Assembly (NCBI RefSeq): GCF_024323335.1
Contig: NC_066580.1
Location: 443,029,851-443,093,850 of the forward strand
Source: Lathyrus oleraceus
Taxonomy: Eukaryota; Streptophyta; Magnoliopsida; Fabales; Fabaceae
Reading direction: 5' to 3'
Length of the DNA stretch: 64,000 nucleotides
A program made the translations under genes and the position numbers. This document shows, in pieces, positions 1 to 62,425 of this stretch. Under the pieces are notes generated by a model. The model was not told where the DNA came from. It made no database searches and saw only the letters and a list, made by a program, of their open reading frames with translations. Numbering within the stretch: position 1 is the first letter of the stretch; each line of letters begins with the position of its first letter.

Positions 1-437
1 GTTTAACAATAGTTGTCCATCTGTCCAGCCACATACATCTGCTCACAGCTCCAGCTCCACATAAACACTTCTCCCCCTTTTTAGTCAAAATTGACCAAAA
101 GTGACCAATTAGACAAAATAAATGTCAATTAGCCTAGCAGAGAATGTCAGCACCGATGTTATAACATTAAAAATGTTAAAACATAATTGTTCAGGAGATA
201 CAAACCATCATCATACACAGCTGTGATAGTTGAGATGATGAACAAATCCATGGAACTCATTAAGAGCCCAAAATATTACAAACAAGCATCAATGAGGACT
301 GCCACGAATTACACATATTCCAAAAAAACAATAAAATTTCAGTCTTCCAAACATCAGCATCAGAACAGCTTCCAAAACATCAATCTTCACAGCACACCTC
401 ACCCAATCTTCAGTCTTCAACACAAAAGGGGGAACCA
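1..437 (-). other. Element A noncoding 3' region, with a polypurine-like tract
   Basis: This stretch lies between the ORF3 stop and the off-window 3' LTR. Read on the minus strand it contains AAAAAGGGGGAG (about 72-83), the same tract found after ORF3 in B (about 39472) and C (about 60661). Sireviruses are known to carry several polypurine tract copies upstream of the 3' LTR, and this is probably the upstream one. The short open frame on the plus strand here has no family resemblance and is not supported. Confidence 0.55.
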
Positions 438-2051
438 TCAATCAGAGGAAGAAGTATCACCTTCACCTTCAGAGCCTTCAGAGCTTTCAGAGCTGCCGCT
501 GTATTGAGCTTTTGACCTCTCTCTTGAGGTATTGGCATCTGAATCTTCACCAGCCTTCTCCATTTCTTCCTTTTCTAGACTCCTAATAAGAACTTCCAGA
601 GATTCTTTTCTTGCCTTGGCTACCCTTATACTATTATCCAGTTCCTTGCAGGTATCTTTTAGTTGATCAATTAAGCTTCCTTGAGATGCAGACTCCCTTT
701 TGGCAGATGTCATGACAACATCATTGACATGAATTCCCTCAAACAACTTATAATGAATGGATAGTGGGGGCTTTCTTCTACTTAGAATGTCATTTGTATT
801 GAGTATGTATGGTTGTTGACTCAAGATAATACCATAAATAATGGATGGGAAGGCAATGGGCAGCTTCACAACATTTGTGGAGGCATGTCTGATAGTTTGA
901 TCAAATACAAACCTTCCAAAGTCATAGTTTATCCTAGTTCCAATTGCATGAATGATTCTCATTGTCTGTAGTCTCTAGATCCACTCCTCCATCAGTTCCT
1001 CTTCCTAGGAACTTGTTGATAATGCTTGGTGAGAATTTCACACATTTACCCCTTACAAACACCTTGTAGAACTTCCTGCTGCTCCTTTCATAAACATCTT
1101 CAGGAATATTCACAATAAACTCTTTTACTAACCCCTCATAACATTGGGGTAGAGCAACCACAATCTTCATTAGTCCAGCATTTTTGATCAAATCAATTAC
1201 TTCCTTTACCTCTACAGCCTCTTTTCCAAGCTCTCTTTCAACAGCTACCCTCCTCTGAATGACAAATTTCCATTTTGCATCACCATATTCTAAATGGAAG
1301 GAGATATTGTCTAGGTGCACAACAGCAACTTTTCCAGGAGACTTCTTAACAGCCTGCCTTTTGCAGGGGAGATGTCTAGGACATCGTCTTCGACATCCTT
1401 ATTAGAGTCAGAACTGTCTCTTTCTTTCCTTTTCCTAACCTCAACTTTACTCCAAGATTTGGAGGGTCCTACACCAAAAGCCTTTTTCACTATTCTTGCT
1501 GTTCTCATTTTAGTCACACTTTTTCCTTTTCTAGTCCTCAGTTTCTCAGCTACACTTGGTTTTACAAGATGGACCAAAGTGTCATCCTCTTCTTCAGAGC
1601 TTTCTACCTCTAGGTCAATAATATTCTCCTGAGACATATTTGCTGGTTTCTTGCTAGGTAGGATTTTTCCTAGAGAACATAGCCCCTCAGCAGCCACTTC
1701 CTTTTCTGACCTAGATGAGTCATCATCTTTCTCAGCTTGGGGTTCCTCCTCAGGAGAGGGGTCCTTTCTGGACAGAGGGGTAGAAACACCCTTGACTGAA
1801 TACCTTTCACTTAGTATCATAGTAACTAGGTTCCTAATGGCACGATCAACATAATGCATGTCCTTTGGAAGAGGAGATTTATCAGGGATATTACCTTGTT
1901 TACTTCCAGCCATGGAAGAGGGACCTGAGGCGTCACTGGGTATCACACACAGAGGAGTGACGTCCAACACGTCTTCATTTAGAAACTCCATGGAGGGAGT
2001 CTTTGCATGATGAGAGGGTTTTGACCCAGATGATGAAGGATGTTGAGACAT
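438..2051 (-). pseudogene. Element A ORF3 (so-called envelope-like protein), frameshifted and internally deleted
   Basis: The reading frame starts at the MSQHPSSSG Met (2051) and is spread over three pieces: about 2051-1311, 1320-934 and 962-438. The N-terminal third is acidic and lysine-rich and looks disordered. The folded core begins at HLDNISFHLE and includes the VKEFIVNIPED motif. The end is a Ser/Glu-rich acidic tail. Compared with B, about 65 residues around the REITARQVKEWP region are missing, and there is a frame change near 1315. I see no signal peptide and no convincing membrane anchor. The core resembles what public plant annotation calls a putative plant transposon protein; its function is not known to me. 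An ATGTCA-type box lies inside it at 707-730. Confidence 0.75.
707..730 (-). promoter_or_regulatory. Symmetric 24-bp box in element A ORF3
   Basis: ATGTCA and TGACAT are separated by exactly 12 bp. The same box sits at the homologous place in ORF3 of B (38915-38938) and C (60332-60355). It overlaps codons for the DVVMTS stretch. Confidence 0.5.
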
Positions 2052-2339: not shown

Positions 2340-3300
2340 GTCAGCTAGTTGCATTTCATGCTTTAGAACTAAGAATTTGTTTTCCACATATTTTCTAATT
2401 GAGTGATGACATCAAATAATGTACTTGGTCCAACTGTGTTGAATATGATTTTTGGACATAGTTGCAACATACAGGTTGTCATAATACAATGTCATGACAT
2501 CGTGTGTGACATTGTATGCAATTATCAGTAGTTTCATCCAATCTAGTTGAGAACAGCTGCTTCCATCTGATATACTTTCATCATAAACATCATTTTTATC
2601 TTTCAAATGTGTAGGAGAAGGAGTCCTTTCACTCTTCATCTCAATCTTCTCCATATTGTTCTTGGTACTTTTACTTTGAGATAGACACATAGTCCCTTGT
2701 GGTCCAGTTCCAACAAAGCTCTTTCCAATTTCAGACTGCGTATGATTAGTCACATGTCCACCCATTTTATCTAACTTCTCAGCTATTTGGGTCATCATGA
2801 CCTTTTCTCCTTTGAAAGTGAGTTTAAGTCTTAGCTTCTGTTGTGACATCCTTGTCTGACATTTCCCACAGACTTGTCCTCTAGCAGCTATACTCATCTT
2901 CATCCCTTCCTTTTTGACATAGGTATACTTTGAGGAATAATCAATTTGAGAGCTCCACATGTAACCGTTGTCTTTGTTCCTGATTCCTTTCATAATTACT
3001 TCACTGTCTTTGTTAGAGATTAGACATTCAGTTTTGGTGAAGTTAACATTCAGACCTTGGTCACATAGTTGACTGATGCTTATTAGATTTGCAGTCAAGC
3101 CCTTAACCAGTAGGATATTGTCAAGTTTAGGAACTCCAGGACAATCAAGCTTGCCTATCCCTTTTATTTCACCCTTTGCTCCATCACCAAAGGTTACATG
3201 GCTTATGGCATGAGGATGAAGATCAGTTATCAAGTATATGTTTCCAGTCACGTGTCTAGAACATCCACTATCAAAATATCACTTTTCTTTGGTTAAGATT
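2340..3300 (-). pseudogene. Element A pol remnant: protease plus scraps of pre-integrase, RT end and RNase H
   Basis: Protease is recognisable by YFDSGCSRHVTG followed by a segment very similar to B (ISQLCDQGLNVNFTKTECL); the Trp before it has become TGA. The chain then runs through VCGKCQT of the pre-integrase domain, unalignable sequence, a short piece like the RT C terminus (LSQSKSTKN, PTHLK), and an RNase H end (SSCSQLDWMK, AYNVTHDVMTLYYDN). A final HEMQLAD matches the RNase H C terminus of B. The integrase catalytic triad and the RT YVDD box are absent. The scraps appear in their normal order, so several deletions are more likely than one. Confidence 0.8.
2484..2517 (-). promoter_or_regulatory. 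Long symmetric box in RNase H remnant of element A
   Basis: An 11-bp perfect inverted repeat (2484-2494 with 2507-2517) flanks a 12-bp spacer. It corresponds to 36871-36902 in B and 58503-58536 in C, where stems of 10 and 11 bp have the same spacer length. In coding terms it spans YNVT..VMTLY. Confidence 0.6.
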
Positions 3301-5137: not shown

Positions 5138-5163
5138 ATTGAAATTCTGGTATCAGATATGAG

Positions 5164-5187
5164 ATGTCGAAGGTAATGTCATGACAC
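5164..5187 (-). promoter_or_regulatory. Symmetric 24-bp box near U5 end of element A LTR
   Basis: Plus-strand reading is ATGTCG, 12 bp, TGACAC. Its distance to the LTR end (24 bp) matches B (24 bp) and C (22 bp). Confidence 0.55.
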
Positions 5188-5757
5188 TAATATCTGAGTA
5201 ATGCAAACAGAATAAAGATAGAGAATAGTAATGCATGATACACAAGTAATTGTTAACCCAGTTCGGTCCAACTCACCTACATCTGGGGGCTACCAAGCCA
5301 GGAAGGAAATTCACTAAAATAGAATCAGTTCAAAGACTCTCCGTACACTTCAACAAGTTACAGTCTTTCTCACCTAATCTCTACCCGTGCAATTTCTACA
5401 TAAGCACTCTTAGATATGAGAACCCACTCATTTCCCTACAATCACACCTGTGATCTTAAACAACAATCCCTTGAGAAAAGAGAACACTTTTCAATAACAC
5501 ACTCTTGATTTTACTTCACAGTTTCAATCAAGAAGACACACTCTTGATCTTGCTTCGCAGCTTTGATCAAGAAGACACACACTCTTGCTTCACAGCTTTA
5601 GAGTGACAAATTACAACCACAAATCAGTCTAATTCAATCATCAAAAGATGACTTGAATGGCTTACAAGTCTCACGACTAAACAGACACAAACCCTAGCTC
5701 TCTCTCTATATTTCGCTCAGTATTGGTTGTGTGTTAAAACAGGTTTTCTAAGTCCCT

Positions 5758-5764
5758 TTTTATA
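5758..5764 (-). promoter_or_regulatory. TATA box of element A LTR
   Basis: TATAAAA on the minus strand, about 555 bp after the LTR start. It separates the U3 boxes from the transcribed part of the LTR. Confidence 0.55.
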
Positions 5765-5984
5765 GAAGCTTTCAGCTGGGCTTGGACATCTTGAAAACCC
5801 TAAACCTATTTTCCAATCAAATTTTCTTATGACAGCTGGTTAGATCTCTTTGGAAAATAAGTAAATCAGGTTGTAATCAATGATTGAATGCGCCCGCAAA
5901 TCAGATCTTCAATCATACATAGATTGCCATTAATTGTGCAATCATAAAACACCAGACATTTACACTGAATGTTCTGTGTACAGG

Positions 5985-6266
5985 TTGTCATGACATCGGA
6001 TCTGACATCCTAGAAAAATCCTGCATAATTCCATAATTCCTTTTATAACTTCCAGCAGGTACAACCATATCAGATGCCATGACCTTGTGTATGACATCTT
6101 GAGACAATCCTGCATGAACATGTCTTTCATTTAAACTCCAGCAGGTACACACATATCAGATGCCATGACCTTGTGTATGACACTCTGAAACAATCATGCA
6201 TGATTATGTTTCTTAAACTCCAGCAGGTACATAGGATATCTCATGTTAAGACATCACACATAACAT
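5985..6266 (-). promoter_or_regulatory. Cluster of four symmetric boxes in U3 of element A
   Basis: The boxes are at 5985-6008, 6074-6097, 6160-6183 and 6243-6266, each with two inverted six-base half-sites 12 bp apart. In the last, the half-sites are ATGTTA and TAACAT, a paired change from ATGTCA/TGACAT. Two of them (6074 and 6160) are near copies within an approximately 86-bp repeat; the other spacings differ. Confidence 0.6.
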
Positions 6267-6324
6267 CTTGTGAACACTCTCTGTTTTACCAAAATTGTTG
6301 CCAATACTTAGAACCAACAAATTT

Positions 6325-29917: not shown

Positions 29918-31407
29918 TTAAAGAGTCTTCTTAGCAACTCGCTCTTTGTGGGCCTTCAATTCTTCTTTGAATCTTCGCATCATCCTTTCACAAAGCAAAA
30001 CAAGGTCACGAACCGAAGGATTAGTGTTATTTTCATCCATGTCCTCTAGAGCATTTTCTAATTTCCATGGTAAGCCTATCGCCACACCATTACAAAACTC
30101 TATGAGGTTAGCCAACTTCGTATGGTATGGAGCAACACTTGGCTGCAGAAGGTTGATGGTGCATTCATACTCATCCAATATCTCATTCAAATGCTTCCTA
30201 TGATTTAGCCAACCCATGCTTTGCTTCTTCAGAGACTCATATTTTTCCTTCCAATAACTAGCTAGCTCCTTGTTGGTATTCAACTCATCACACTTCTCTT
30301 CCCAGGCTTTAGGACATATTTGAGAGGCTCTTTGGGCTCGTTCCTTAAGATGTCTTTCACGCACCACTTCAGCTTCAGAGCTTCGAAGTTGCTCCTTCAG
30401 TTCTTGGATTTGGGCTTCAAGCTCCTCCCTTACCTCCTTCTTTTACTTAGTGGCTAGGTCCCACCAACGCTTCCACTCTTGTCCATCTCTTTTGGCCTTA
30501 GCTAACTCATCATGGAGTGAAACTAATCCACTATCAGCCTGATCTAGGCACTCCAAGACTCTTTCCTTGAGATCTTGCTCAATTTTGTTCTTCTTACGAC
30601 TCTCCTCCAAAAGTTCCTTCCTTTGGTTACTCTTCCTCTTGAGAATCATATTTTCCCCAATTTCTTTGTAGAGTTTAGATTGCAGATCCTCTTTCTCCTT
30701 TCCAAGTTTAGCTACCATGGCTCTAAGTTCTTCCACCTCTTCAAGATAAACAGGGATTGGTTATGGTGAAATAGACTTTAGAGGAATCTCTATAGAAAAA
30801 GGGAGCTTCACAACTTTGATCCTCTCCGAGACCCGTTGCTGATAAGGAACCCTTGATGCACCATTCTTCTTTACTAATTTTGTTCCTTTGGTATGCACCT
30901 TTTCCCAAGATTGGATGATCTTACATAGTAGAAAAGGATCATTGGTTCCCATATCATTCAAAACCATCTTTTCTAACTCTTTATCATCGGGCTTCCCACG
31001 TATAGGGTATCCAAACTGTCGTAGAACTAACATGGGGTTGTAGTAGATGCAACCTTTAGATCCTATTAGTGATACATTTGGGAAACTACCATAACTGACA
31101 ATGATTTCTTCAACATTCAGCTTATGTCGGTACCAAATGATATCCTTACTAGACAAAGACACCAGAGTTCTTGCCCAATCCCCATTGGACATTTCACTGA
31201 TGTGAGCATTAGGCTTGAACACATATGAGATAAGCCAATTATAGAGCAATGGAAGGCAACATATCAACATTCCATTCTTTTTTTGATGTCGAGTATGCAA
31301 AGTATGAAAAGTGTCAGCTAGTAGTGGAGGAACCAAACTTTGTTTATCCTTCCAAACGGCCCAAAAGGTACTTATGGCAGCTGAATCTATAAAACCTTCA
31401 TGGGTTG
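29918..31407 (-). pseudogene. Element E ORF1, C-terminal two thirds
   Basis: Ogre elements carry an ORF of unknown function upstream of gag. This part resumes right at Sirevirus B's insertion point (HEGFIDSAAISTFWAVWK) and runs through LPLLYNWLISYVFKPN and IIWYRHKLNVEEI to a stop near 30761. Two coiled-coil pieces follow (30736-30443 and 30367-29918: LGKEKEDLQSKLYKEIGEN; YWKEKYESLKKQSMG), divided by further stops. The family is probably what databases list as a DUF in Ogre ORF1. The N-terminal part lies at 40741-41248. Confidence 0.7.
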
Positions 31408-31460
31408 TGTTGGTTCTATGTGTTGGCATCAATTTTGGTAAAACCTAGAGTTATCACAAG

Positions 31461-31563
31461 TTGTCACGTGTGTTGTCTTGACATGTGATATCAGTTTCCT
31501 GCAGGATGCTTAAATATGGTTGTGCAGGATTTAGCTAAGATGTCAGACCCGATGTTAAGACAT
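31461..31563 (+). promoter_or_regulatory. Two symmetric boxes in U3 of element B
   Basis: TTGTCA...TGACAT (31461-31484) and ATGTCA...AGACAT (31540-31563), each with a 12-bp spacer, upstream of the TATA motif. Both are conserved in the 3' LTR (39812 and 39891). Confidence 0.55.
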
Positions 31564-32336
31564 GTGTATACAGAATATTCAGTCTGAATGTTATGTATCT
31601 TAAGATTGCGCTTTTCATGCAAATTTGTGTGTGATTATGTGGAGATTGAATGCGCTATTCGAGGAGTAATTTGATTTAAAACCAAATTGATTTATTTTCC
31701 AATAAAGGATGATTAGCTGTCGTGAATAAGAAGATACACAAGGAAAATAGATTTAGGGTTTTATGATGCCCATGCCCATTCAAAAGCTTCTATTTAAAGG
31801 CCATGTAAAACCTGATTTTAACACACAAGAAACAAACGAAATAGTGAGAGAGTTTCAAGGTTTTAGTCTTGTGTGATCTTGTGTATTGTGAGCCATTCAT
31901 TCATCCTATTGATGATTGAATTGGACTGACTTTTGTGTTGTAATTTTTCTAATCTAAGCTTTGAAGCATGAGTGTGTGTTTACTTGGTTGAAGATTTTAA
32001 GCAAGATCAAGTATGTGTTCTTGAAGAGTGTCTTCTTTCTTTGTAATATTTGTTTTTATATCACTGCTGTGGTTGAGGGGGAGTGAGTAGTGTCTCATAT
32101 CTAAGAGTTCTTAGATAGAAGTCACACGGGTAGAGATTAGGTAAAAATACTGTAACTTGAAGTTGTTTATTGAGAGTCTTTGAACTAATTCTGTTTAGTG
32201 GATTTCCTTCCTGGCTTGGTATCCCCCAGACGTAGGTGAGTTTGCACCGAACTGGGTTAACAATTGCTTGTGTCACTTGTTCTATTGTTTCTTTGTCTTT
32301 TATCCTGTTTATATTTTAGTTGTTGTTCAGATATTA

Positions 32337-32360
32337 GTGTCGTGACATTACCTTCGACAT
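32337..32360 (+). promoter_or_regulatory. Symmetric box near U5 end of element B
   Basis: GTGTCG, 12 bp, CGACAT. The inner TGTCG/CGACA pair keeps symmetry with a different base from the usual TGTCA/TGACA. In the 3' LTR the second half has mutated to CAACAT. Confidence 0.5.
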
Positions 32361-32386
32361 CTCATATCTGATACCAGAATTTCAAT

Positions 32387-33972: not shown

Positions 33973-36900
33973 TTGTATGGCTATCCTAGTCCTACTCATC
34001 ATCAACCTAGACCCAAACACCATATCCCTGTTAATAGAAAACAATGGGTTCCTAGGGATGGTGCTACTAACTTGATAGCTCACACTTCCTTCAGAGTTTC
34101 AGCCAAAGAAGACTGGTATTTTGACAGTGGATGCTCCAGACACATGACTGGAAGCAAAAACCTGCTAATTGACTTTCAACCTCATGCCACCAGCTATGTG
34201 ACTTTTGGTGGTGGAGCAAAGGGTGATATCAAGGGGATTGGAAAGCTAAACTGTCCTGGAGTCCCTAACCTTGATAATGTGCTGCTTGTTAAAGGATTGA
34301 CTGCAAACCTGATCAGCATCAGTCAACTATGTGACCAAGGTCTAAATGTGAACTTCACAAAAACTGAATGTTTGATTACTAATGGAAAAAATGAGGTGAT
34401 CATGAAAGGAGTCAGGTCTAAGGACAACTGCTATATGTGGAATTCTCAAGAAACTAGTTATTCATCAATGTGTACTCTAGCTAAACAAGAAGAAGTGAAA
34501 CTATGGCATCAAAAACTGAGTCATCTCCATCTTAAAGGAATGAAGAGGATTATATTTGTTAAAGCTGTAAGAGGAATCCCAAAATTAAAGATTGATGAAG
34601 GAAGAGTTTGTGGTGAGTGTCAGATTGGAAAGCAGACAAAGATGTCACACCAGAAGATCAAACATGACACCACATCTAGAGTGCTTGAACTTCTCCACAT
34701 GGACTTGATGAGACCTATGCAGGTGGAAAGTCTTGGTGGGAAAAGGTATGCTTATGTTGTGGTGGACGACTTCTCCAAATATACCTGGGTAAATTTTATA
34801 AGGAAAAAATCTGATGTGTTTGAGGTGTTCAAAGATCTTTGCTTAAGACTTCAAAGAGAAAGAGAGAGTTGGGTTATCAGAATCAGAAGTGATCATGGGA
34901 AAGAATTTGAGAACAGTAAATTTGCTGAATTTTGTTCATCTAAAGGAATTGGTCATGAGTTCTCATCTCCCATTACCCCTCAACAAAATGGTGTGGTAGA
35001 AAGGAAAAATAGAACTCTCCAAGAATCTGCTAGAGCTATGATTCATGCGAAGAAGTTGCCTTACCACTTTTGGGCTGAAGTTATGAACACGGCCTGCTAT
35101 GTTCACAATAGAGTAACCTTGAAGAAAGGGACCCCAACCACTTTATATGAAGTCTGGAAGGGAAGAAGACCTACTATCAAATACTTCCATGTGTTTGGTA
35201 GTAAATGTTATATCCTGGCTGATCGTGAACAAAGAAGGAAAATGGACCCCAAGAGTGATGGAGGAATATTTCTGGGCTACTCAATAAACAGCATAGCGTT
35301 TAGGGTCTTTAATTCCAGAATAAAAGTTATGATGGAATCTATTAATGTTGTTATTGATGATCAAGAGACTGATGTCACGGACGATGTTGAAACATCTCTG
35401 AATGATGCCCCAGCCGATCTCCTGGACAACAGTAATGAGAGTGAGTCCACTCAAGCTGAACCTGAAGCTGATAAAATTAATAAGGGACCCTTTATCAGAA
35501 TTCAGAAGGATCATCCGAAAGATCTCATTATAGGAGACCCAAATAAAGGGGTCACCACTAGATTAAGGGAAGTGATCTCACATGCCTGTTTTGTGTCCAA
35601 GATTAAGCCCAAGAATGTCAAAGAAGCCTTAACTGATGAATTCTGGATCAATGCCATGCATGAAGAGTTAGGCCAATTCAAGAGAAATGAAGTGTGGGAA
35701 TTGGTTCCAAGACCTGAAGGAATAAATGTTATTGGAACAAAGTGGGTTTACAAGAATAAATCTGATGAAAAAGGTGTGGTTACTAAAGATAAAGCAAGAT
35801 TGGTAGCACAAGGATACACTCAAGTTGAAGGAGTTGACTTTGATGAAAAATTTGCCCCTGTAGGTCGCCTGGAGTCCATTAGATTACTGCTCGGAGTGGC
35901 ATGTATTCTGAAGTTTAAACTATTCCAAATGGATGTGAAAAGTGCCTTCTTAAATGGCTACTTAAATGAGGAAGTGTATGTTGAACAACCTAAAGGGTTC
36001 ACATACCCAAATCTTCCAAAGCATGTGTATAAGTTGAGGAAAGCCCTCTTTGGGTTGAAACAAGCTCCGAGAGCTTGGTATGATAGACTCACAGTGTTTC
36101 TCATTGACAATGGATACCGGAAGGGAGGCATTGATAAGACTTTATTTGTCAAAAATGAAGGAGGAAAACTCATGGTGGCTCAGATATATGTGGATGATAT
36201 TGTGTTTGGTGGGATGTCAAATAAGATGGCTCAACATTTTGTTGAACAAATGCAGTCTGAATTTGAAATGAGCCTTGTTGGAGAACTAACCTATTTTCTT
36301 GGGCTACAAGTCAAGCAGATGGAAGATTCTATCTTTCTATCTCAAAGCAAATATGCCAAAAATATTGTTAAGAAGTTTGGCATGGGGAATGCAAGCCACA
36401 AAAGGACACTTGCTCCTACTCATCTGAAAGTGTCTAAAGATGAAAATGGTGTCAGTGTGGATCAAAGTCTCCACAGAAGCATGATATGGAGTCTGTTATA
36501 TCTCACAGCAAGCAGACCTGACATTGCTTTTGTTGTAGGTGTATGTGCTAGATATCAAGCTGAACCAAAGGTGAGTCACATAAACCAAGTGAAAAGGATC
36601 CTGAAATATATCAATGGCACTAGTGACTATGGGATGCTATACACTCATGGATCTGAATCTGTGCTGTTTGGATATTGTGATATTGATTGGGCTGGAAGTG
36701 CTGATGATAGGAAAAGCACATCAGGAGGATGCTTCTTCTTTGGGAACAACTTAATATCATGGTTTAGTAAGAAACAAAATTGTATGTCTCTGTCCACTGC
36801 TGAAGCTGAATACATAGCAACTGGAAGTAGTTGCTCTCAACTGGTGTGGATGAAACAAATGTTGACTAAATACAATGTCACGCAAGATGTCATGACATTG

Positions 36901-37349: not shown

Positions 37350-39213
37350 ATGTCACAACATCAAACTCCATCTGGTTCAAAAACTACTAAGCCTACTCAC
37401 AAGGATAACACTCCTTCCATGGACTTTCTCGATGATGAGGTTTTGGATGTGGTCCTTTTGTCAGTTATTCCAGGCGAAGCCCTTGATTTAAACCATCCCA
37501 TGGATGCATCTGCTTCTGCATGCCCCAATCAAGGTAACAACTCTAGTATCCCTTCTAGCTCAACTCATGCCACTAGTTCTAAGGAAGATATGCATCACAC
37601 TGATCGTGTCATAAGAAACCTAGTCACTAGAATCCTTAATGAAGGACATTCTGTGAAGGGAGTTTCTACTCCCCTGTCTAAAATGTACCCCTCTCCTGAG
37701 GTTGAACCTCATAGTGAGAAGGATGACGATTCCTCTAGATCTGAGAAGGACATGGCTGCTGAAGGTTTGTGCTCTCTAGGGCAAACTGCGTCTGGTAAAA
37801 GAAAATCTATGGCATCTACAACTGCCAATGCTTCACACTCTGAGAAGCATGATTCTGCAAACAATGTGATTGACCTAGAGGATGATAGGTCTGATGATCA
37901 AGATGATAGCTTACTTTATCACTTAAAGCCTAATGTGGCTAAGCGTATGAAGACTAGAAAAGGTAGATTTGTGGCTGAAATGATGTCAGCTAAAATAGCT
38001 AAGAAGACTGCTGGTGTAGGCCCTTCCAAATCTTGGAGCAAAGTTGATGTGAAGAAGAGGAAGGTTAGAGAAGTTTCTGAGTCTGACGAAGATGTTGAGG
38101 AAGATGTCCCTGACATCTCCCCTGTGAAGAGGACCACTGTGAAGAAGTCCCCTGTGAAAGTTGCTGCTGTACATTTGGACAATATCTCTTTCCATCTTGA
38201 AGATGGAGCTGCCAAATGGAAGTTTGTGATTCAAAGAAGGGTGGTTGTAGAGAGAGAGTTAGGAAAGGATGTTGTTGAAGTCAAAGAGGTCATGGACCTA
38301 ATAAAGAATGCTGGGTTAATGAAGATTGTGGCTGGATTATCTCAGTGCTATGAGGGATTGGTTAAGGAATTCATTGTCAACATTCCTGAAGATATTGCTG
38401 ACAAGAACATCAAGGAATTTTGCAGAGTATTTGTGAGAGGAAAATGTATCACATTTTCTCCCACTGTCATTAACAAGTTTCTGGAAAGAGGTATAGAGGG
38501 TGCAGGTGAATTGGAAGCTACAAACAATGAGGTCTGTAGAGAAATTACAGCAAGGCAAGTGAAAGAGTGGCCTATTAAAAAGCATCTTCCTGCTGGGAAG
38601 CTGACTGTTAAGTATGCCATATTGCATAAAATAGGATCTGCAAATTGGGTGCCTACCAACCACATTTCCACAATTTCTAATACCCTTGGAAGATTTATCT
38701 TTGATGTTGGAACCAAACTTTGACTATGATAGATTTATGTTTGAACAAATTGTCAAGCATGCTTCTACTAATGCAATAAAGCTGCCTATAGCCTTTCCCT
38801 CTATGATTTGTTGGATTATCCTGAGTCAACACCCTGGGATTCTGAGTACCAATGACCTACCAAGTAGAAGAAAACCTGCTCTGTCAGTACAATATAAACT
38901 GTTTAAAGGCAGTCATGTCGAAGACATTGTCATGACATCTGCTATGAAAAAGCCAGCCTCAAAAGTTGGACTTATTGCTGAGCTGAAGGAAATGTGTAAA
39001 GAACTGAGTGATGGGATAAGGGTAACAACAGCTAGGAAAGAATCGTTGGAAGCCCTGATTGCAAGCTTGAAGCGAGTTGAAGGTGGGAATATTGAATAGG
39101 CTAAGGAAGCTGAAGCCCAAACCTCTAGTGAGAGGTCTGCAACTAATGATGAGACAAGTGGCAATTCTATTTCTGATGCTGATGAAGCTGCAAGCTCAAG
39201 CTTCTCTGATTAG
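37350..39213 (+). pseudogene. Element B ORF3 (envelope-like), frame change and premature stop
   Basis: It starts MSQHQTPSGSKTT, 240 bp after pol. The first half is acidic and Ser-rich with a basic patch (VKKRKVREVSESDEDVEED). The core starts HLDNISFHLEDGAAKWKFV and includes VKEFIVNIPEDI, REITARQVKEWP and WVPTNHISTISN. A frame change near 38710 moves the rest (ASTNAIKLPIAFPSM, DIVMTSA) to another frame. A TAG at 39097 precedes an acidic Ser-rich tail that ends at 39211-39213. No signal peptide or clear membrane segment is seen. Sireviruses with this ORF are usually called envelope-containing, but nothing here shows an envelope function. Confidence 0.8.
38915..38938 (+). promoter_or_regulatory. 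Symmetric box in element B ORF3
   Basis: ATGTCG, 12 bp, TGACAT, at the position homologous to boxes in A and C. Confidence 0.5.
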
Positions 39214-39469: not shown

Positions 39470-39758
39470 TAAAAAGGGGGAGAAGTAGAAATATGTTATG
39501 CTATAGATGATGTTATAGATGATGTTAAGGATGTCGTTGGAGATAATGTTAGAGGTGGAAGTGTCCTGTCTGTGTAAAACAGACTGGTGTTAGCTGAATG
39601 GGGAGGTGGTGTGTTCTGAGCACAAATGCATGTGTGTTTGCTATGCTATAGTAATGTGTGTATGCTTACTTCTGCTGCTGAACTGATACTGTGGTTATTT
39701 TCTTGTGAAACGTATGATCTGATGTACGTTTTAGCCAAAATTTGCCAAAGGGGGGGTT
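39470..39758 (+). other. Element B 3' noncoding region with two polypurine tracts
   Basis: AAAAAGGGGGAG near 39472 and a terminal tract GCCAAAGGGGGGG just before the LTR at 39759. Both have counterparts in C. Multiple tracts upstream of the 3' LTR are a described Sirevirus trait. The terminal one primes plus-strand DNA synthesis. Confidence 0.7.
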
Positions 39759-40735
39759 TGTTGGTTCTATGTGTTGGCATCAATTTTGGTAAAACCTAGA
39801 GTTATCACAAGTTGTCACGCGTGTTGTCTTGACATGTGATATCAGTTTCATGCAGGATGTTTAAATATGGTTGTGCAGGATTTAGCTAAGATGTCAGACC
39901 CGATGTTAAGACATGTGTATACAGAACATTCAGTCTGAATGTTATGTATCTTAAGATTGCACTTTTCATGCAAATCTGTGTGTGATTATGTGGAGATTAA
40001 ATGCGCTATTCAAGGAGTAATTTGATTTAAAACCAGATTGATTTATTTTCCAATAAGGGATGATTAGCTGTCGTGAATAAGAAGATACGCAAGGAAAATA
40101 GATTTAGGGTTTTATGATGCCCATGCCCTTTCAAAAGCTTCTATTTAAAGGCCATGTAAAACCTGGTTTTAACACACAAGAAACGAATGAAATAATGAGA
40201 GAGTTTCAAGGTTTTAGTCTTGTGTGATCTTGTGTATTATGAGCCATTCGTTCATCCTATTGATGATTGAATTGGACTGACTTTTGTGTTGTAATTTGTC
40301 CACTCTAAGCTTTGAAGCATGAGTGTGTGTTTACTTGGTTGAAGCTTTTAAGCAAGATCAAGTATGTGTTCTTGAAGAGTGTCTTCTTTTTTTGTAATAT
40401 TTGTTTTTATATCACTGTTGTGATTGAGGGGGAGTGAGTAGGGTCTCATATCTAAGAGTTTTTAGATAGAAGTCACACGGGTAGAGATTAGGTGAAAAAA
40501 CTGTAACTTGAAGTTGTTTACTGAGAGTCTTTGAACTAATTCTGTTTAGTGGATTTCCTTCCTAGCTTGGTAGCCCCCAGACGTAGGTGAGTTTGCACCG
40601 AACTGGGTTAACAATTGCTTGTGTCACTTGTTCTATTGTTTCTTTGTCTTTTATCCTGTTTATATTTTAGTTGTTATTCAGATATTAGTGTCGTGACATT
40701 ACCTTCAACATCTCATATCTGATACCAGAATTTCA
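39759..40735 (+). repeat. Element B 3' LTR (977 bp)
   Basis: Same length as the 5' LTR, with about 34 substitutions and no indel noticed. It is followed by the GGTTG duplication. Confidence 0.93.
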
Positions 40736-54607: not shown

Positions 54608-54658
54608 TGTAGGTGCTTAATTGGCTGCATTATATGGTAAAACACTAGATGGTTACTA

Positions 54659-55169
54659 ATGTCTTGACTGATGTCATGACATGTAGATGTGACTACATTG
54701 TAGTTACTGCAGGACTAGCTAACACAGGTTTTATTGAATGTCAAACTGGATGCTGTGACATTCATACCTGTCAACAGATACTAAGGACAGCAGGAGTTCT
54801 GTTAGAACTTAGTATTTATTTCCAGTCTGGTTATCAAGGAAAGACCAGACCTGGCATAAGGCCTACTGACTGAAAGTCAAACTGGATGTTATGACTTTCA
54901 TCATTGATAGCAGCTGCTGAAGATTAGACAGAGTGGTGTTCTGCTATACTTCAGCATGTAACTTAGTTTGTTTTTCAAAAAGAACAACAGAACTAACTTA
55001 AGGCCAATTGTGTAAATGTTAAGTTGGACACTTTGACATTTATTAATGTAAGCTTTCACTGTAGTATGGTCATTTTGATCATGTACAGGTCAGCAAAATT
55101 GTACAGTCTGTTTTCTGGAAAAACAGACTCAGCATATGAACCTTGATGTCAAGCTGAATGTCGTGACAT
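54659..55169 (+). promoter_or_regulatory. Cluster of five symmetric boxes in U3 of element C
   Basis: Boxes at 54659-54682, 54735-54764, 54871-54900, 55013-55042 and 55146-55169, all with a 12-bp spacer. Stems reach 9 bp. TGAATGTCA/TGACATTCA (second) and TGAAAGTCA/TGACTTTCA (third) show a paired change. All lie upstream of the TATA box and are present in the 3' LTR at +6413. Confidence 0.7.
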
Positions 55170-55406
55170 TCATGCCTGACAGCATATGCTACATTGTAGG
55201 TTGTTCAGTTTTCTGTTTCAGCTTTTTCTCAGGCTATTCTTCAGGAAGTCAACAGCTTAGAGAAAAACCAGGAAATCAACAACCAATCTACATTCAATGA
55301 ACCTAACAAATAGCCTATTTGTTAGTAACCTAAATGTTGAATTTATGGAAACTTGTGTGACCTTAAATTCAGGAGAATACAGGTGCAAAAGCCCAGGATA
55401 CTGCAA

Positions 55407-55413
55407 TATAAAA
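55407..55413 (+). promoter_or_regulatory. TATA box of element C LTR
   Basis: TATAAAA, followed by GGAAGGCG; repeated at 61820-61826. Confidence 0.6.
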
Positions 55414-55960
55414 GGAAGGCGTTCCTTCATTCAGTTTCAAGGATTTTGAGGCATGAAGATTAAGTGTGTCCATCATACTTCACTGCTGTATTTTTGTGAG
55501 TCTTGTATTAGACGTATCTTGTAAGCCAAGTCATTATCAAGTAGATGATAGCTTTGGCATAGGGTGTTCATTGAGTTGTAAGTGTTGTGTCACTCAAAGC
55601 TTTTAAGCGTGAGTGCTGTGTATCTTGATTAAAGCTGTGAAGCACAATCAAGAGTTGTTTGAAGTGTGACTTCAACTTGTCTTTAATATTGTTTAAAGAT
55701 AGTAATCACTGAGGTGATTGAGGGGGAGTGAGTAGGAACTCTGATCTTAGGTTAAGATTGAAATTGCATTGGGTAGGGATTAAGTGATAAGTTGTAAACG
55801 GGTGAGTTTAGCTTTGAATTGATACTACTAATAGTGGATTTCCTCCCTGGCTTGGTAGCCCCCAGACGTAGGTCATGTTGGACTGAACTGGGTGAACAAT
55901 TACTTGTGTTATTTACTGCACTTACTGTTAAGTTCTGCATAATCCCTGTCAGTGCAGAAT

Positions 55961-55990
55961 TGGATGTCATAACAACCAGTGTGACATCCA
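55961..55990 (+). promoter_or_regulatory. Symmetric box near U5 end of element C
   Basis: A 9-bp perfect inverted repeat TGGATGTCA/TGACATCCA around a 12-bp spacer. Spacer sequence is unrelated to that of the U5 boxes in A and B although position and spacing agree. Confidence 0.65.
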
Positions 55991-56014
55991 AAGTCTGATA
56001 ACTAGAATTTCAAT

Positions 56015-56082: not shown

Positions 56083-58596
56083 ATGGACAAGGATTTAGGA
56101 CACTCAAACAGACTACCCATGTTGGATGGCTCTAATTATGATGACTGGAAGCCTCGTATGATAGCCTTCTTAAGGTCTCTAGACAGCAAAGTCTGGAGAG
56201 CTGTCAACAAAGGATGGGAACATCCTATGAGGACAGGTGAAGATGGAGTCAGTGTGCAGATTCATGAAGAAGAGTGGGACAAGGAGCAAGAGGCATTAGC
56301 TCTTGGAAATTCCAAGGCCTTGAATGCATTGTTCAATGGAATCAGCAAGAACATCTTCAGGCTGGTACACCACTGTGAACTAGCTAAGGAAGTTTGGGAT
56401 ACCCTCAAGGTAACTCATGAAGGTACTTCCAAGGTGAAGATGTCCAAACTTCAGATGCTGACCACCAAGTTTGAAAATCTGAGGATGAAAGAGGATGAGA
56501 CTATTCATGACTTTCACATGAATATTCTTGAACTTGCAAACACCTCTGGTGGACTAGGTGAGAAAATGGCTGAAGAGAAACTCGTAAGAAAGATTCTCAG
56601 GTCCTTGCCTAAGAGATTTGCTATGAAGGTCACAACCATAGAGGAGGCGCAGGACATCTGCAACATGAAGGTGGATGAACTCATTGGTTCCCTCCAAACC
56701 TTTGAAATGGGCTTGGGTGAGTATGCAGATAAGAAGAACAAAAGCATAGCCTTTGTATCTAATGCTGAAGAGGAGTCAGAAGCAGGATATACTGGAGGTA
56801 AGGAAAGTATATCAGAAGCCTTAGCCATGCTTGGGAGACAGTTCAACAAGCTCATAAAGAAATTTGATCAACAGGGTAGACCTAATGTCAAGAACATCCC
56901 GTCTGACATAAATAAAAGATCAACTTCTGAAGAAAAGGTCACCCAAGGCAAGGGAATCCAATGCCATGGATGTGAAGGATATGGTCATATTAAGGATGAC
57001 TGCCCTACCTTTCCCATGAGGCAAAGGAAAGGGCTATCTGTCACCTGGTCAAAAGAAGACACTGAGAGTGAATCTGAAGGAGAATCGGCCAAACATGTCA
57101 CTGCACTGACCAGTGTGTGTGCCTCTGAGGATAACTCTAGTGGAGATGAGCTCACCTTGGATGAACTTGCTGTCTCATATAAAGAATTATGTGTTAAAAG
57201 TGCAGAAGTTTGCATCCAAGGAGAAAAGCATAAGAAACTCATCAAAGAGCTAGAAGCTGAGAAACTAGAGCAGCTGAAAGTCATAGAGGATCTGAAGGGT
57301 GAGATTTCTTCGCTGATCTCTAAGCTAGACCAAATGACAAAATCCATCAAAATGTTGAATAAGGGATCTGACACCTTGGAAGAGATCCTGAAGACAGGAC
57401 AGAAGTCTGGAACCACATCTGGTTTAGGCTTTGGGAAAAGATCCTCAGTTGAACGCAAACGCCCAAAGGCTAAAGTTCAGAAACCCAAAGGGAAGTCACA
57501 TCCAAAGTCACAACATCGAGGAACCAGAATGAACAATCATCAGAAGAAGAAATTCAAGAGATGGAAATGTCATTATTGTGGTAGATTTGGTCACATAAAA
57601 CCATTCTGCTATAGGCTGCATGGTTACCCAAACCAGACCCCTCAAGGTAGGCCTAAGAAACAAGTGTGTATGCATAATGTCCCCATCAAGAAACAAACAT
57701 GGGCGACTAAGCAGACACCTCAGGTCAATCCTAAGCAGCTGGTATCTAAGATTCACTTCTCGCCTGAGAATCAACAGTGTGTTGCTAACCTTGCTCACAC
57801 TTCTTCAAGGGGACATATCAGACAAGATTGGTACCTTGATAGTGGCTGCTCAAGGCATATGACTGGGATGAACAACCTAGTGGTGAATCTACATCCTGCT
57901 AACACCAAGTTTGTGACATTGGGGGATGGAACTAAAAGAGAAGTCATGGGTGTTGGGAAGCTGGACTGTCCAGAAACTCCAAAATTGAGTGATGTATTGT
58001 TAGTAAAAGGACTAATTGTGAACCTCATAAGCATCAGCCAGCTGTGTGACCAAGGATACAAGGTGGAATTTACCAAGGGAGGATGTGTGGTGTTGAATGG
58101 GTGCAATCAAGAAGTGATGAGAGGAGATAGATCCAAAGATAATTGCTATTTATGGAAATCTAAAGACTATCTCAACCTTCCCAAATGTCCTTTGGCCAAG
58201 GGAGATCAGGAAGGGAAGCTGGGACATGGAAGACTTGATCCCCTTCAGGTAAAAGGAGTGAAGAAGAGCAGTTCCAAGGGAGCGATGAGAAGAGTATCAT
58301 ATCTGTCTTTAGGTAAAAGGACAGACTGTGGAAAGTGTCCGATCAAAAGTAATGAGCCCTTGATTCCCATTGGTCATCATGCTACTGATATGACAGCAAG
58401 GGACAGACAGAGGTGTGTATTATTGACGTCTGCAGAAACTCAGTACCTAGCTTGTGGTAGCAAGTGGTCATCTCCAGTATGGAGGAACCTGATGCAGACG
58501 GAGTACAATGTCACCCGGAATGTCATGACATTGTACATTACTAAGTGTGAGACTAGTAAGGGCAAAAAGGGAATGCGTGCGTCTGAAAAGTTATAG
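56083..58596 (+). CDS. Element C gag-protease polyprotein with RNase H scrap
   Basis: The frame of 837 codons starts MDKDLGHSNRLPML, the same start context as in A and B. The capsid region includes LRMKEDETIHDFHM and RKILRSLPKRFAMK. Zinc knuckle 1 is CHGCEGYGHIKDDC (from residue 294), then a coiled coil (HKKLIKELEAEKLEQLKVIEDLK), a basic linker and zinc knuckle 2 CHYCGRFGHIKPFC (from 496). Protease has WYLDSGCSRHMTG with Asp586 and continues through LLVKGLIVNLISISQLCDQG. The pre-integrase zinc region is vestigial (CGKCPIK). The frame ends with an RNase H scrap (TSAETQYLACGS, YNVTRNVMTLY). Product would be particle protein plus its own protease. Both knuckles and the protease motif are intact, unlike those of B. 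Confidence 0.9.
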   Translation: MDKDLGHSNRLPMLDGSNYDDWKPRMIAFLRSLDSKVWRAVNKGWEHPMRTGEDGVSVQIHEEEWDKEQEALALGNSKALNALFNGISKNIFRLVHHCELAKEVWDTLKVTHEGTSKVKMSKLQMLTTKFENLRMKEDETIHDFHMNILELANTSGGLGEKMAEEKLVRKILRSLPKRFAMKVTTIEEAQDICNMKVDELIGSLQTFEMGLGEYADKKNKSIAFVSNAEEESEAGYTGGKESISEALAMLGRQFNKLIKKFDQQGRPNVKNIPSDINKRSTSEEKVTQGKGIQCHGCEGYGHIKDDCPTFPMRQRKGLSVTWSKEDTESESEGESAKHVTALTSVCASEDNSSGDELTLDELAVSYKELCVKSAEVCIQGEKHKKLIKELEAEKLEQLKVIEDLKGEISSLISKLDQMTKSIKMLNKGSDTLEEILKTGQKSGTTSGLGFGKRSSVERKRPKAKVQKPKGKSHPKSQHRGTRMNNHQKKKFKRWKCHYCGRFGHIKPFCYRLHGYPNQTPQGRPKKQVCMHNVPIKKQTWATKQTPQVNPKQLVSKIHFSPENQQCVANLAHTSSRGHIRQDWYLDSGCSRHMTGMNNLVVNLHPANTKFVTLGDGTKREVMGVGKLDCPETPKLSDVLLVKGLIVNLISISQLCDQGYKVEFTKGGCVVLNGCNQEVMRGDRSKDNCYLWKSKDYLNLPKCPLAKGDQEGKLGHGRLDPLQVKGVKKSSSKGAMRRVSYLSLGKRTDCGKCPIKSNEPLIPIGHHATDMTARDRQRCVLLTSAETQYLACGSKWSSPVWRNLMQTEYNVTRNVMTLYITKCETSKGKKGMRASEKL
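58503..58536 (+). promoter_or_regulatory. Long symmetric box in RNase H scrap of element C
   Basis: An 11-bp perfect inverted repeat GTACAATGTCA/TGACATTGTAC around a 12-bp spacer, about 60 bp before the gag-protease stop. Confidence 0.6.
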
Positions 58597-58785: not shown

Positions 58786-60581
58786 ATGGCTCGTCAATCC
58801 GATACCTCCTCCTACACCACCATGTTTGATTCTCTCAGCACCGAGTCTTACCATCCTACCCGGGAGGATCCAGTTGTTGACGCAGCAACTTCGTCCCATG
58901 CAAGAAGACCTAAGGAAACGGTCACCGGGTTTTCATCAGAAATCGCTCTTGATGAGCACACAAGGGAAGGGTCAAGGTATGTACATAACTCCATTGCAAC
59001 TATCGTCACTCAGATACTATCTGGTAATCGAAATGTTCCTGGGGTTTCTGTTCCCTTGAACACAATCATTCCTGATAGTGCTGCATGTCAAGATAAAGCA
59101 GTAGTGTTGAGGAAAAATGTCACTGATAACGTTGAGCAACCAGATGCTCATGAGGGGTCAAAGATTGACAAACCCTCAGGCAAAGTGAGAGGTGAGAAGG
59201 CCAATGTTACTCAAAGTGTTGAGGACAACCCTAGAACTGAAACGATTAACGTGGAAGAGCTCTCGGACAATGAACTTCTGGCTTCAGTTGTCCCTAGGAT
59301 AGCCAAGAGAGTTAGGTCTAGAAGGGAAAATAAGACTGTGGAGCAGAAGTCCCCCTCCAAGGAAGTTGGTGAAACAAATCCTCACAAGCAACCAGAGTCA
59401 GAGAGTGCACACAAGAGGAAAGGTTACGGACCTACAAAAGCTTGGAGCAAAGAGGTGCCTAAGAAGTTGAAGACCAAGGCTGTGGTGGTTGAGTCTGAAT
59501 CTGATGTCCCATGTGATGTCACAACATCCATGTCCAGGAAGAAGCCTTCTTCCAGCAGGCTGGCAACCAGTGTCCCAGAAGTTCCCATTGACAATGTGTC
59601 CTTCCACTTTGCCTCCAGTGTCAACAGGTGGAAGTATGTATACCACAAGAGGCTGGCATTGGAGAGAGAACTGGCCCAGAATGCATTGGAGTGTAAAGAA
59701 ATTGTGGATCTCATCAAAGAAGCAGGACTGATGAGAACTGTGAGTAAACTCCCTAAATGCTATGAGACCTTAGTGAAGGAGTTCATTGTTAATCTGTCTG
59801 AGGAGTGTGCTGATGGGAAATCCCGAGAATTTAGAAAGGTCTATGTGCGTGGCAAGTGCGTGACTTTCTCCCCTTCAGTGATAAATCTGTATTTGGGAAG
59901 ACCAGATGAAGTGCAGCCAGAACTTGAAGTGACTGACAACACTATCTGTCAAGTCATCACAGCAAAGCAAGTACAGAAATGGCCTCTCAAAGGGAAGCTG
60001 GTAGCCAGCCAACTAAGTGTTAAGTATGCAATACTTCACAAAGTTGGAGCAGCCAACTGGATACCCACTAATCACAAGTCAACTGTGTCTGTGGCATTAG
60101 GAAAGTTCATCTATGCAGTGGGAACCAAGACAAAGGTGGACTATGGCACGTACATCTTTGATCAGACAATGAAACATGCTGGGAGCTTTAGTGTGAAGGA
60201 ACCCATTGCCTTTCCATCTCTCATATGTGGAATTGTGCTGAATCAATTTCCACATATCCTGACAGATAATGACTTTGTGAGGAGAAGAGAGAGTCCATTG
60301 GCTTTCAGCTACAAACTGTTCCTGGGCAAGCATGTCCCTGACATTGTCTTGACATCAGGAGAATCATCCAAAGCTGGCAACCAACCAGACAAAGCTGATG
60401 TTATTGCAGTTCTCAAAGAGACTTGCAAAGAACTGGAGGCTAGAAAGCATGCTCTGGAAAAAAGCTCATCTTGCAATTGGAGACTTCTGCTGAGGACACG
60501 GATGGAGCTGATAAGCAAATCTCTGAGGAGGAGGAGGAGGCCAGCTCTGAAGAGGAGGCTGATGATGAGGCTGAGGATTAA
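58786..60581 (+). CDS. Element C ORF3 (envelope-like), almost intact
   Basis: The open frame begins at 58603, but the Met of MARQSDTSSYTT at 58786 fits A and B better. A disordered Ser/Lys/Glu-rich N-terminal half is followed by the core: IDNVSFHFASSVNRWKYVY, VKEFIVNLSEE, VITAKQVQKWPLKGK, WIPTNHKSTVSV, EPIAFPSLICG and HVPDIVLTSGE. At an A6 run (60458-60463) the frame runs on to 60675 with an unrelated Arg-rich and hydrophobic tail. One base back gives SEEEEEASSEEEADDEAED and a stop at 60579-60581, matching the acidic tails of A and B. So a one-base change or a minus-one shift separates core and tail. No signal peptide is seen; function unknown. Confidence 0.75.
60332..60355 (+). promoter_or_regulatory. 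Symmetric box in element C ORF3
   Basis: ATGTCC, 12 bp, TGACAT; homologous position to 707-730 and 38915-38938. Confidence 0.45.
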
Positions 60582-61020: not shown

Positions 61021-62425
61021 TGTAGGTGCTTAATTGGCTGCATTATATGGTAAAACACTAGATGGTTACTAATGTCTTGACTGATGTCATGACATGTAGA
61101 TGTGACTACATTGTAGTTACTGCAGGACTAGCTAACACAGGTTTTATTGAATGTCAAACTGGATGCTGTGACATTCATACCTGTCAACAGATACTAAGGA
61201 CAGCAGGAGTTCTGTTAGAACTTAGTATTTATTTCCAGTCTGGTTATCAAGGAAAGACCAGACCTGGCATAAGGCCTACTGACTGAAAGTCAAACTGGAT
61301 GTTATGACTTTCATCATTGACAGCAGCTGCTGAAGATTAGACAGAGTGGTGTTCTGCTATACTTCAGCATGTAACTTAGTTTGTTTTTCAAAAAGAACAA
61401 CAGAACTAACTTAAGGCCAATTGTGTAAATGTTAAGTTGGACACTTTGACATTTATTAATGTAAGCTTTCACTGTAGTATGGTCATTTTGATCATGTACA
61501 GGTCAGCAAAATTGTACAGTCTGTTTTCTGGAAAAACAGACTCAACATATGAACCTTGATGTCAAGCTGAATGTCGTGACATTCATGCCTGACAGCATAT
61601 GCTACATTGTAGGTTGTTCAGTTTTCTGTTTCAGCTTTTTCTCAGGCTATTCTTCAGGAAGTCAACAGCTTAGAGAAAAACCAGGAAATCAACAACCAAT
61701 CTACATTCAATGAACCTAACAAATAGCCTATTTGTTAGTAACCTAAATGTTGAATTTATGGAAACTTGTGTGACCTTAAATTCAGGAGAATACAGGTGCA
61801 AAAGCCCAGGATACTGCAATATAAAAGGAAGGCGTTCCTTCATTCAGTTTCAGGGATTTTGAGGCGTGAAGATTAAGTGTGTCCATCATACTTCACTGCT
61901 GTATTTTTGTGAGTCTTGTATTAGACGTATCTTGTAAGCCAAGTCATTATCAAGTAGATGATAGCTTTGGCATAGGGTGTTCATTGAGTTGTAAGTGTTG
62001 TGTCACTCAAAGCTTTTAAGCGTGAGTGCTGTGTATCTTGATTAAAGCTGTGAAGCACAATCAAGAGTTGTTTGAAGTGTGACTTCAACTTGTCTTTAAT
62101 ATTGTTTAAAGATAGTAATCACTGAGGTGATTGAGGGGGAGTGAGTAGGAACTCTGATCTTAGGTTAAGATTGAAATTGCATTGGGTAGGGATTAAGTGA
62201 TAAGTTGTAAACGGGTGAGTTTAGCTTTGAATTGATACTACTAATAGTGGATTTCCTCCCTGGCTTGGTAGCCCCCAGACGTAGGTCATGTTGGACTGAA
62301 CTGGGTGAACAATTACTTGTGTTATTTACTGCACTTACTGTTAAGTTCTGCATAATCCCTGTCAGTGCAGAATTGGATGTCATAACAACCAGTGTGACAT
62401 CCAAAGTCTGATAACTAGAATTTCA
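61021..62425 (+). repeat. Element C 3' LTR (1405 bp)
   Basis: Four substitutions relative to the 5' LTR (near 61321, 61545, 61852 and 61866). Followed by CTGAG. Confidence 0.93.

What the first reader, a model, noticed from the sequence alone, without database searches (positions are those of the whole stretch)
54659..55990. A 24-bp tripartite box with a fixed 12-bp spacer recurs across the Sirevirus LTRs
Six inverted pairs related to ATGTCA...TGACAT occur in each LTR of C, all with exactly 12 bp between half-sites. The same geometry occurs five times in A's LTR (5164, 5985, 6074, 6160, 6243) and three times in B's (31461, 31540, 32337). Often the spacer's second half is another ATGTCA-like site, giving ATGTCA-N6-ATGTCA-TGACAT. 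All but one per LTR lie upstream of TATA; that one lies 22-24 bp from the U5 end in all three elements although C's spacer sequence is unrelated. Sireviruses are known to have symmetric repeated motif boxes with a CGG-CCG core in U3; these may be a diverged counterpart with a different core, or a separate system such as a dimeric protein site or RNA hairpin. I did not notice the pattern in Ogre, MULE or element F DNA.
Basis: partly seen in the sequence, partly recalled or inferred. Interest (0 to 1): 0.87.

Follow-up and report, generated by a model that had tools for sequence, protein, structure and literature searches.

The report
Paired TGTCA boxes in pea retrotransposons
About half of the sampled Sirevirus jumping genes in this (probably pea) genome carry repeated copies of a strictly spaced symmetric DNA box, probably a switch that a protein reads, where some relatives in other plants have a different box.

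Summary
In this 3.8-Gb genome (inferred: pea), exact TGTCA-N12-TGACA occurs at 85,606 places, against 7,124 at spacing 11; reversed-pattern controls give 2,013 and 1,422. They mark one Sirevirus sub-lineage. Of 60 LTR ends chosen by the Sirevirus LTR/PBS junction, 30 carry the published polyC signal; 29 of the other 30 have a box near the U5 end. Exact boxes: 13 in 17 LTRs of the second kind, 0 in 13 of the first.

Boxes also lie inside RNase H and ENV-like coding sequence, one still where pol is mostly lost. The usual architecture is F-N6-F'-R, reversed in U5. Four bases beyond each half-site are complementary between arms above shuffling.

Best reading: an operator array for a multimeric DNA-binding protein, a counterpart of the CGG-CCG Sirevirus boxes with another core and geometry. 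An RNA stem-loop is the main rival. One of two families tested shows no slower half-site change. The protein is unknown; TGTCA is a published rice BELL-homeodomain site. My literature searches found no earlier description.

The parts
54608..56012 (+). 5' LTR of element C
   Evidence: 99.7% identical to 61021-62425; ends TTTCA before ATTGGTATCAGAGC
61021..62425 (+). 3' LTR of element C
31402..32384 (+). 5' LTR of element B
   Evidence: 96.4% identical to 39754-40735
39754..40735 (+). 3' LTR of element B
5140..6320 (-). LTR of element A (upper bound approximate)
   Evidence: homology to B LTR; junction at 5140
54659..54682 (+). U3 box, C
54738..54761 (+). U3 box, C
54874..54897 (+). U3 box, C, both arms changed alike (AAGTCA/TGACTT)
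55016..55039 (+). U3 box, C
55146..55169 (+). U3 box, C
55964..55987 (+). U5 box, C; ends 25 bp before the LTR end
31461..31484 (+). U3 box, B
31540..31563 (+). U3 box, B
32337..32360 (+). U5 box, B; ends 24 bp before the LTR end
5164..5187 (-). U5 box, A; ends 24 bp before the LTR end
5985..6008 (-). U3 box, A
6074..6097 (-). U3 box, A
6160..6183 (-). U3 box, A
6243..6266 (-). U3 box, A, both arms changed alike (ATGTTA/TAACAT)
36875..36898 (+). internal box in RNase H coding sequence, B
58508..58531 (+). internal box in the RNase H remnant of C, just upstream of the ENV-like ORF
2489..2512 (-). internal box in decayed RNase H of A
38915..38938 (+). internal box in ENV-like region, B
60332..60355 (+). 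internal box in ENV-like ORF, C
707..730 (-). internal box in ENV-like region, A
144..167 (-). internal box in linker of A, reversed polarity (F-R'-N6-R)

Best explanation
The boxes are a cis-acting protein-binding array of one Sirevirus sub-lineage. Each box is a DNA operator of three half-sites on a 6-bp grid: ATGTCA-N6-ATGTCA-TGACAT, so one adjacent inverted pair and one inverted pair 12 bp apart, with arms of about nine base pairs. A multimeric host (or element-encoded) DNA-binding protein occupies the array in the upstream part of the LTR and sets when the element is transcribed; U5 and internal copies would act as extra sites of the same protein. Shown: recurrence, fixed spacing, polarity, sub-lineage restriction, position. 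Partly shown: constraint on half-sites. Inferred: that a protein binds, that it acts on DNA, and what it does. A BELL/TALE homeodomain is a candidate by core only.
For: Spacing 12: 85,606 exact places vs 7,124 at 11; reversed-pattern controls 2,013 and 1,422. In the last 1,250 bp of 17 box-group LTRs: exact pairs at spacing 12 thirteen, at 0 six, at 25 four, at 14 and 26 two each, all other spacings to 40 zero; in 13 polyC-type LTRs zero. The inner third half-site F', which was not used to pick boxes, is .50-.89 identical between units of one LTR against .21-.49 in the outermost flanks; a DNA multimer explains it and a hairpin loop does not. In the C family (5 sequences) half-sites differ .049 vs .104 for the rest of U3, bootstrap p .004. 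Polarity is reversed in U5 and linker boxes, and folding shows no significant sense-strand advantage. TGTCA is bound by rice BELL homeodomain OsBIHD1 in EMSA (PMC5292422 passages).
Against: In the A family (10 sequences) half-sites are no slower than the rest of U3 (.095 vs .101, p .42). F and R identity between units (.72-1.00) is partly by construction, because units were picked by matching ATGTCA/TGACAT within two mismatches; one search has a milder form of the same bias. Complementarity of the variable outer bases (69 of 128 vs 51.1 shuffled) is better explained by pairing of the two arms than by independent half-sites. With one mismatch allowed, spacing 0 (32) exceeds spacing 12 (26) and spacing 7 has 15 in the same 17 LTRs. 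L052, L108 and L105 have no U3 box within two mismatches. No binding or expression data exist here.
Confidence: 0.47

Rival explanations
1. RNA stem-loop: each box folds in the genomic RNA as a nine-pair stem with a 12-base loop, used for packaging, dimerisation, reverse-transcription start (U5, next to the PBS) or as a small-RNA source. U3 copies are transcribed at the 3' end of the RNA, U5 copies at the 5' end.
For: Outer arm bases 1-4 complementary in 69 of 128 cells vs 51.1 shuffled (p .0002), none above shuffling at 5-10. Paired changes: ATGTTA/TAACAT, AAGTCA/TGACTT, CTGTCA/TGACAG. U5 of C folds with z -3.55, of B -2.74. The box survives in the pol remnant of two elements without detectable RT.
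Against: U5 folding z averages -1.17 sense and -1.22 antisense over 11 distinct ends (polyC ends, 11: -0.82 and -0.22); box 36-mers fold better in sense in 21, worse in 10 of 32, p .14. Polarity reverses in U5 and linker. A loop need not be exactly 12 or contain a third half-site.
Confidence: 0.25
2. Passive inheritance: an ancestral tandem-repeated U3 sequence whose boxes are old duplicates kept without function.
For: Regular box steps (C family mostly 130-149 bp, with some of 68-79; A and B 79-89) show old tandem arrays with weak similarity beyond the box; A-family half-sites are not slower than U3.
Against: C-family half-sites are slower; F' stays alike though not selected for; boxes also in RNase H, ENV-like and U5 sequence, not part of the array; retained where pol is mostly lost.
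Confidence: 0.15
3. Integration or mobilisation signal: the boxes, with the U5 copy as the key one, are bound by the element's own integrase or Gag, the U5 box standing in for the polyC integrase signal of other Sireviruses.
For: The U5 box lies about where the polyC signal lies, and no end had both among 60 scored (30 polyC, 29 with box, 1 with a deletion-bearing box).
Against: Most copies are far from LTR ends, in an array in the upstream part; the integrase role of polyC is itself only proposed (PMC2829016 section 13).
Confidence: 0.1

Closest known systems
Sirevirus repeated-motif (RM) boxes with CGG-CCG core (Bousios et al. 2010, PMC2829016)
   Same: Palindromic, multi-copy, clustered in the upstream part of the LTR, extra copies round the ENV gene; symmetric extensions that vary round a fixed core.
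   Different: Core TGTCA-TGACA, not CGG-CCG (0 of 30 LTRs of this genome have CGG-N0..7-CCG); arms 12 bp apart rather than close; third half-site; a U5 copy and coding-sequence copies; CpG-poor. The legume elements SIRE1-1, Medicago and Lotus2 are in the paper's Table 2 but not in its list of 13 RM bearers.
Maize Sirevirus LTR palindromes CACCGGACNNNGTCCGGTG linked to small RNAs (Bousios et al. 2016; seen only as cited in PMC10760457)
   Same: Palindrome clusters in the regulatory part of Sirevirus LTRs.
   Different: Different core and a 3-base centre; no small-RNA data were available here.
Sirevirus polyC integrase signal near the LTR 3' end (PMC2829016 section 13)
   Same: Occupies about the same place near the U5 end.
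   Different: The U5 box stands in its place; the two did not occur together in 60 LTR ends.
TGTCA site of the rice BELL homeodomain OsBIHD1 (PMC5292422, passages)
   Same: Identical 5-base core.
   Different: A single short core; no 12-bp inverted geometry is described in the passages read.

Membership tests
Sirevirus (Ty1/copia) | LTR end CA + ATTGG + PBS TATCAGAGC | tested here: met
   A, B and C match the junction described in PMC2829016 section 12
Sirevirus (Ty1/copia) | copia-type gag and pol | tested here: met
   B: RVT_2, rve, pre-integrase; C: Retrotran_gag_2. C and A gave no hit to B's RT piece
Sirevirus (Ty1/copia) | polyC signal near LTR 3' end (17 of 21 in the paper) | tested here: not met
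   absent near the LTR end of A, B, C and of 30 of 60 junction-chosen ends; present in the other 30. Not universal in the genus
Sirevirus (Ty1/copia) | multiple polypurine tracts upstream of the 3' LTR | not tested
   not examined
CGG-CCG RM boxes | CGG-CCG core | tested here: not met
   0 in the last 1,080-1,250 bp of 30 of 30 fetched LTRs; A, B, C not in that count
CGG-CCG RM boxes | at least eight copies per element, clustered in the upstream half of the LTR before TATA | tested here: inconclusive
   position met in A and C; B has no TATA[AT]A match; copies per LTR run from none to seven
CGG-CCG RM boxes | extra copies round the ENV gene | tested here: met
   RNase H and ENV-like boxes in A, B, C, one of each, fewer than in the paper
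CGG-CCG RM boxes | form CpG islands | tested here: not met
   mean CpG observed/expected 0.28 over 17 box-group LTRs
BELL/TALE homeodomain site | TGTCA core | tested here: met
   sequence only
BELL/TALE homeodomain site | binding by such a protein | not testable with these tools
   no binding data or DAP-seq library

The most novel reading that the evidence does not exclude
The box is a portable cis signal that the elements carry at U5, in coding sequence and in U3, and that elements without a detectable RT keep because it lets them be mobilised in trans: a dispersed packaging or dimerisation signal working through arm pairing, the first of its kind in plant copia elements as far as I know (recalled, not searched).
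Probability: 0.15. Interest if true: 0.75.

Novelty: new variant of a known kind. Interest (0 to 1): 0.5.

Why it matters
It gives Sireviruses that lack the published CGG-CCG boxes a counterpart with its own geometry, splits the sampled Sireviruses of this genome into two kinds by a non-coding signal, and offers 85,606 exact genomic places (most of those looked at lie in such elements) in which to test what the palindromes in these LTRs do. If a host factor reads the box, it is a plausible handle on when a large set of this genome's retrotransposons is expressed or silenced.

Tried and rejected
Rejected: CGG-CCG membership; duplication of one segment in three copies only; RNA-only reading on wobble grounds (6 compatible vs 3 incompatible transitions, too few either way); internal RNase H box as pure coding coincidence (of the 120 proteins listed out of 5,883 hits, seven have YNVEQDVMTLY and others variants, the commonest being YDVEQDALTLY with 25; but C keeps the box where its pol is decayed). 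Recalled from memory, in no call, and set aside for orientation or spacing: ARF, NIN/NLP, WRKY and bZIP sites, GRF. Led nowhere: viral contigs and genome-contig scans gave no LTR-like context by eye; a literature search for the literal box strings and for Sirevirus with pea and palindromes, or SIRE1 promoters, gave no earlier description; PMC4728375 is not held; one search was a failed script, redone. A pooled shuffle test ignores shared ancestry and is not relied on. Not obtained: genome counts at spacing 13, counts of the two junction types, RNase H DNA of polyC-type elements.

Full report
WHAT IS THERE. The window lies on contig C2 of a 3.795-Gb genome; that it is pea is my inference from size, contig lengths and repeat content, not a label in a call. 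Elements A (minus strand), B and C have LTRs at about 5140-6320, 31402-32384/39754-40735 and 54608-56012/61021-62425, and the Sirevirus junction CA/ATTGG TATCAGAGC (rule from PMC2829016 section 12). B has copia integrase and reverse-transcriptase domains; C has a copia gag and an ENV-like ORF with PF20167.

CHANCE. Genome-wide, exact TGTCA-N12-TGACA is found at 85,606 places, the reversed pattern at 2,013; with 11 bases between, 7,124 and 1,422. At least one listed spacing-11 hit looks like a one-base-deleted box (C1:15261037). Counts at other spacings could not be obtained genome-wide. Not every exact place is in an element: of 14 stretches picked for an exact box, three (L024, L029, L037) show no similarity to A, B or C. 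In 20 random 10-kb stretches the exact counts are 6 at spacing 12, 4 at 0 and at most 3 elsewhere up to 40; the four at 0, two of three at 13 and the three at 25 are parts of boxes or share a half-site with one, and three at spacing 2 lie together in L005 and are not boxes. With one mismatch allowed the same stretches do not single out spacing 12 (13 pairs; 16 at 31, 15 at 0, 13-14 at several others); nine of those 13 lie in A/B/C-like elements and four do not. In single LTRs the best dyad recurs up to six times, against 1-2 in nearly all shuffles; A, B, L053, L003 and L035 do not stand out.

TWO KINDS OF SIREVIRUS. The junction pattern has 6,617 + 6,871 exact matches. From the first 100 listed, all on contig C1, I examined 60: 20 with 1.5 kb of LTR and 40 with 151 bp. 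30 have a run of five or more C near the LTR end, as in the published polyC signal; 30 do not. Of these 30, 29 match the box within four of 12 positions, scanning 18 offsets; the 30th (L094) carries a deletion in the box. The 30 polyC ends never come nearer than six mismatches in the same scan. The box ends 24-27 bp before the LTR end in 25 of 29 and at 19 in four, where the register is uncertain. Ten of the 23 non-polyC short ends, chosen for diversity, were then fetched as full LTRs. In the last 1,250 bp of 17 box-group LTRs there are 13 exact boxes; in the last 1,080 bp of 13 polyC LTRs none. With one mismatch: spacing 0 thirty-two, 12 twenty-six, 7 fifteen in the first; one at 12 in the second.

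ANATOMY. Read in the sense of the element (blastn to A/B/C), U3, RNase H and ENV boxes are mostly F-N6-F'-R with F' = ATGTCA-like; U5 and linker boxes are F-R'-N6-R. Steps between boxes are mostly 130-149 bp in the C family, with some of 68-79, and 79-89 bp in A and B (L051 has 168). Between units of one LTR, F and R are .72-1.00 identical, but units were picked by matching F and R within two mismatches, so part of that is by construction. F', not used for picking, is .50-.89; N6 .17-.72; flanks 30-55 bp away .21-.49. Internal boxes encode N-V-x-x-[DN]-V-M-T in RNase H and H-V-x-D-[IV]-V-[ML]-T in the ENV-like region, in the same reading phase relative to the box. Seven of 120 listed related proteins carry Y-N-V-E-Q-D-V-M-T-L-Y and others variants (some are named as clover), so amino acids favour the RNase H box in part. 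But C has no detectable RT, and its RNase H remnant is B-like through the box (identical bases in 10-bp bins: 9, 7, 10) and not beyond it (3, 3, 2, 3, 2, 4); upstream bins are 6, 6, 3, 8, 5, 7. tblastn of three pol pieces finds in C only a pre-integrase piece and residues 74-117 of the RNase H piece, ending just after the box, and in A a pre-integrase piece and residues 86-183. A and C may share one ancestral deletion. Within the C family (L028, L034) the remnant box is little better kept than its surroundings.

SELECTION AND PAIRING. C family, 5 sequences: half-sites .049 vs .104 for other U3 columns, p .004. A family, 10 sequences.095 vs .101, p .42; this counts against selection, though copies of one family mostly carry mutations from after insertion. 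Boxes that could be assigned to an element, plus the new LTRs, were reduced to 32 distinct ones; boxes not assignable were left out, and three were dropped by hand as probable chance or overlapping hits (W:38927, L001:5492, L001:6130). Outer positions 1-4 are complementary in 69 of 128 cells vs 51.1 shuffled (sd 4.6, p .0002); positions 5-10 are not (42 of 192 vs 53.6); the spacer is not (50 of 192 vs 59.0). Some of the 32 are paralogues, so p is optimistic. The 29-box set with those three left in gave 65 of 116 vs 45.2, and a first set of 39, unassigned boxes included, gave the same trend. Sense and antisense folding do not differ significantly.

MECHANISM. I favour a DNA operator array: fixed spacing, a third half-site on a 6-bp grid, location in the upstream part of the LTR, both polarities. 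With nine-base arms the arm centres are 21 bp apart, two helical turns (arithmetic, inference). The arm covariation is the best argument for RNA pairing and keeps that rival at 0.25. On recheck I lowered the operator reading from 0.50 to 0.47 and raised passive inheritance from 0.12 to 0.15, because half-site identity between units is partly by construction. TGTCA is a BELL homeodomain site in rice (passages of PMC5292422), a lead only: the inverted 12-bp geometry is not described there.

KNOWN. PMC2829016 was read in abstract, passages and sections 9, 12, 13 and 19; PMC10760457 and PMC5311732 in passages; others as search listings. Searches listed no paper that I recognised as describing a TGTCA-N12-TGACA Sirevirus box; I saw titles and abstract starts of the listed papers only, and most subscription papers are not held.

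Noticed in passing
32361-32400 (B), 5120-5163 minus (A): The last bases of the LTR (TCTGATACCA) are complementary to the PBS region (TGGTATCAGA), so the 5' leader can fold over the PBS; weaker in C.
   Followed up: partly
55623-55653 (C); two copies in A LTR: A second dyad, TCTTGAT...ATCAAGA round AAGCTGTGAAGC, downstream of TATA in the R/U5 part.
   Followed up: no
54608-62425: Element C has LTRs 99.7% identical, gag and an ENV-like ORF but no detectable RT: a recent, probably non-autonomous copy.
   Followed up: partly
L038-L057, L065-L104: Sirevirus LTR ends with the same PBS junction split 30:30 into polyC and box types.
   Followed up: yes
37350-38723, 58603-60675: ENV-like ORFs match Pfam PF20167, a putative plant transposon protein.
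   Followed up: no
L060:689, L062:1033: Two viral contigs carry ATGTCA-N6-ATGTCATGACAT with alike flanks; three hits in all may be chance, but the pair looks like a phage operator.
   Followed up: no
54738-55169: Four C boxes sit in an old tandem array with steps of 130-142 bp; A and B use 79-89 bp.
   Followed up: partly
LTRs of A, B and C: With two mismatches allowed TGTCA-N7-TGACA is as frequent as N12 in the three LTRs (15 each); not explained.
   Followed up: no
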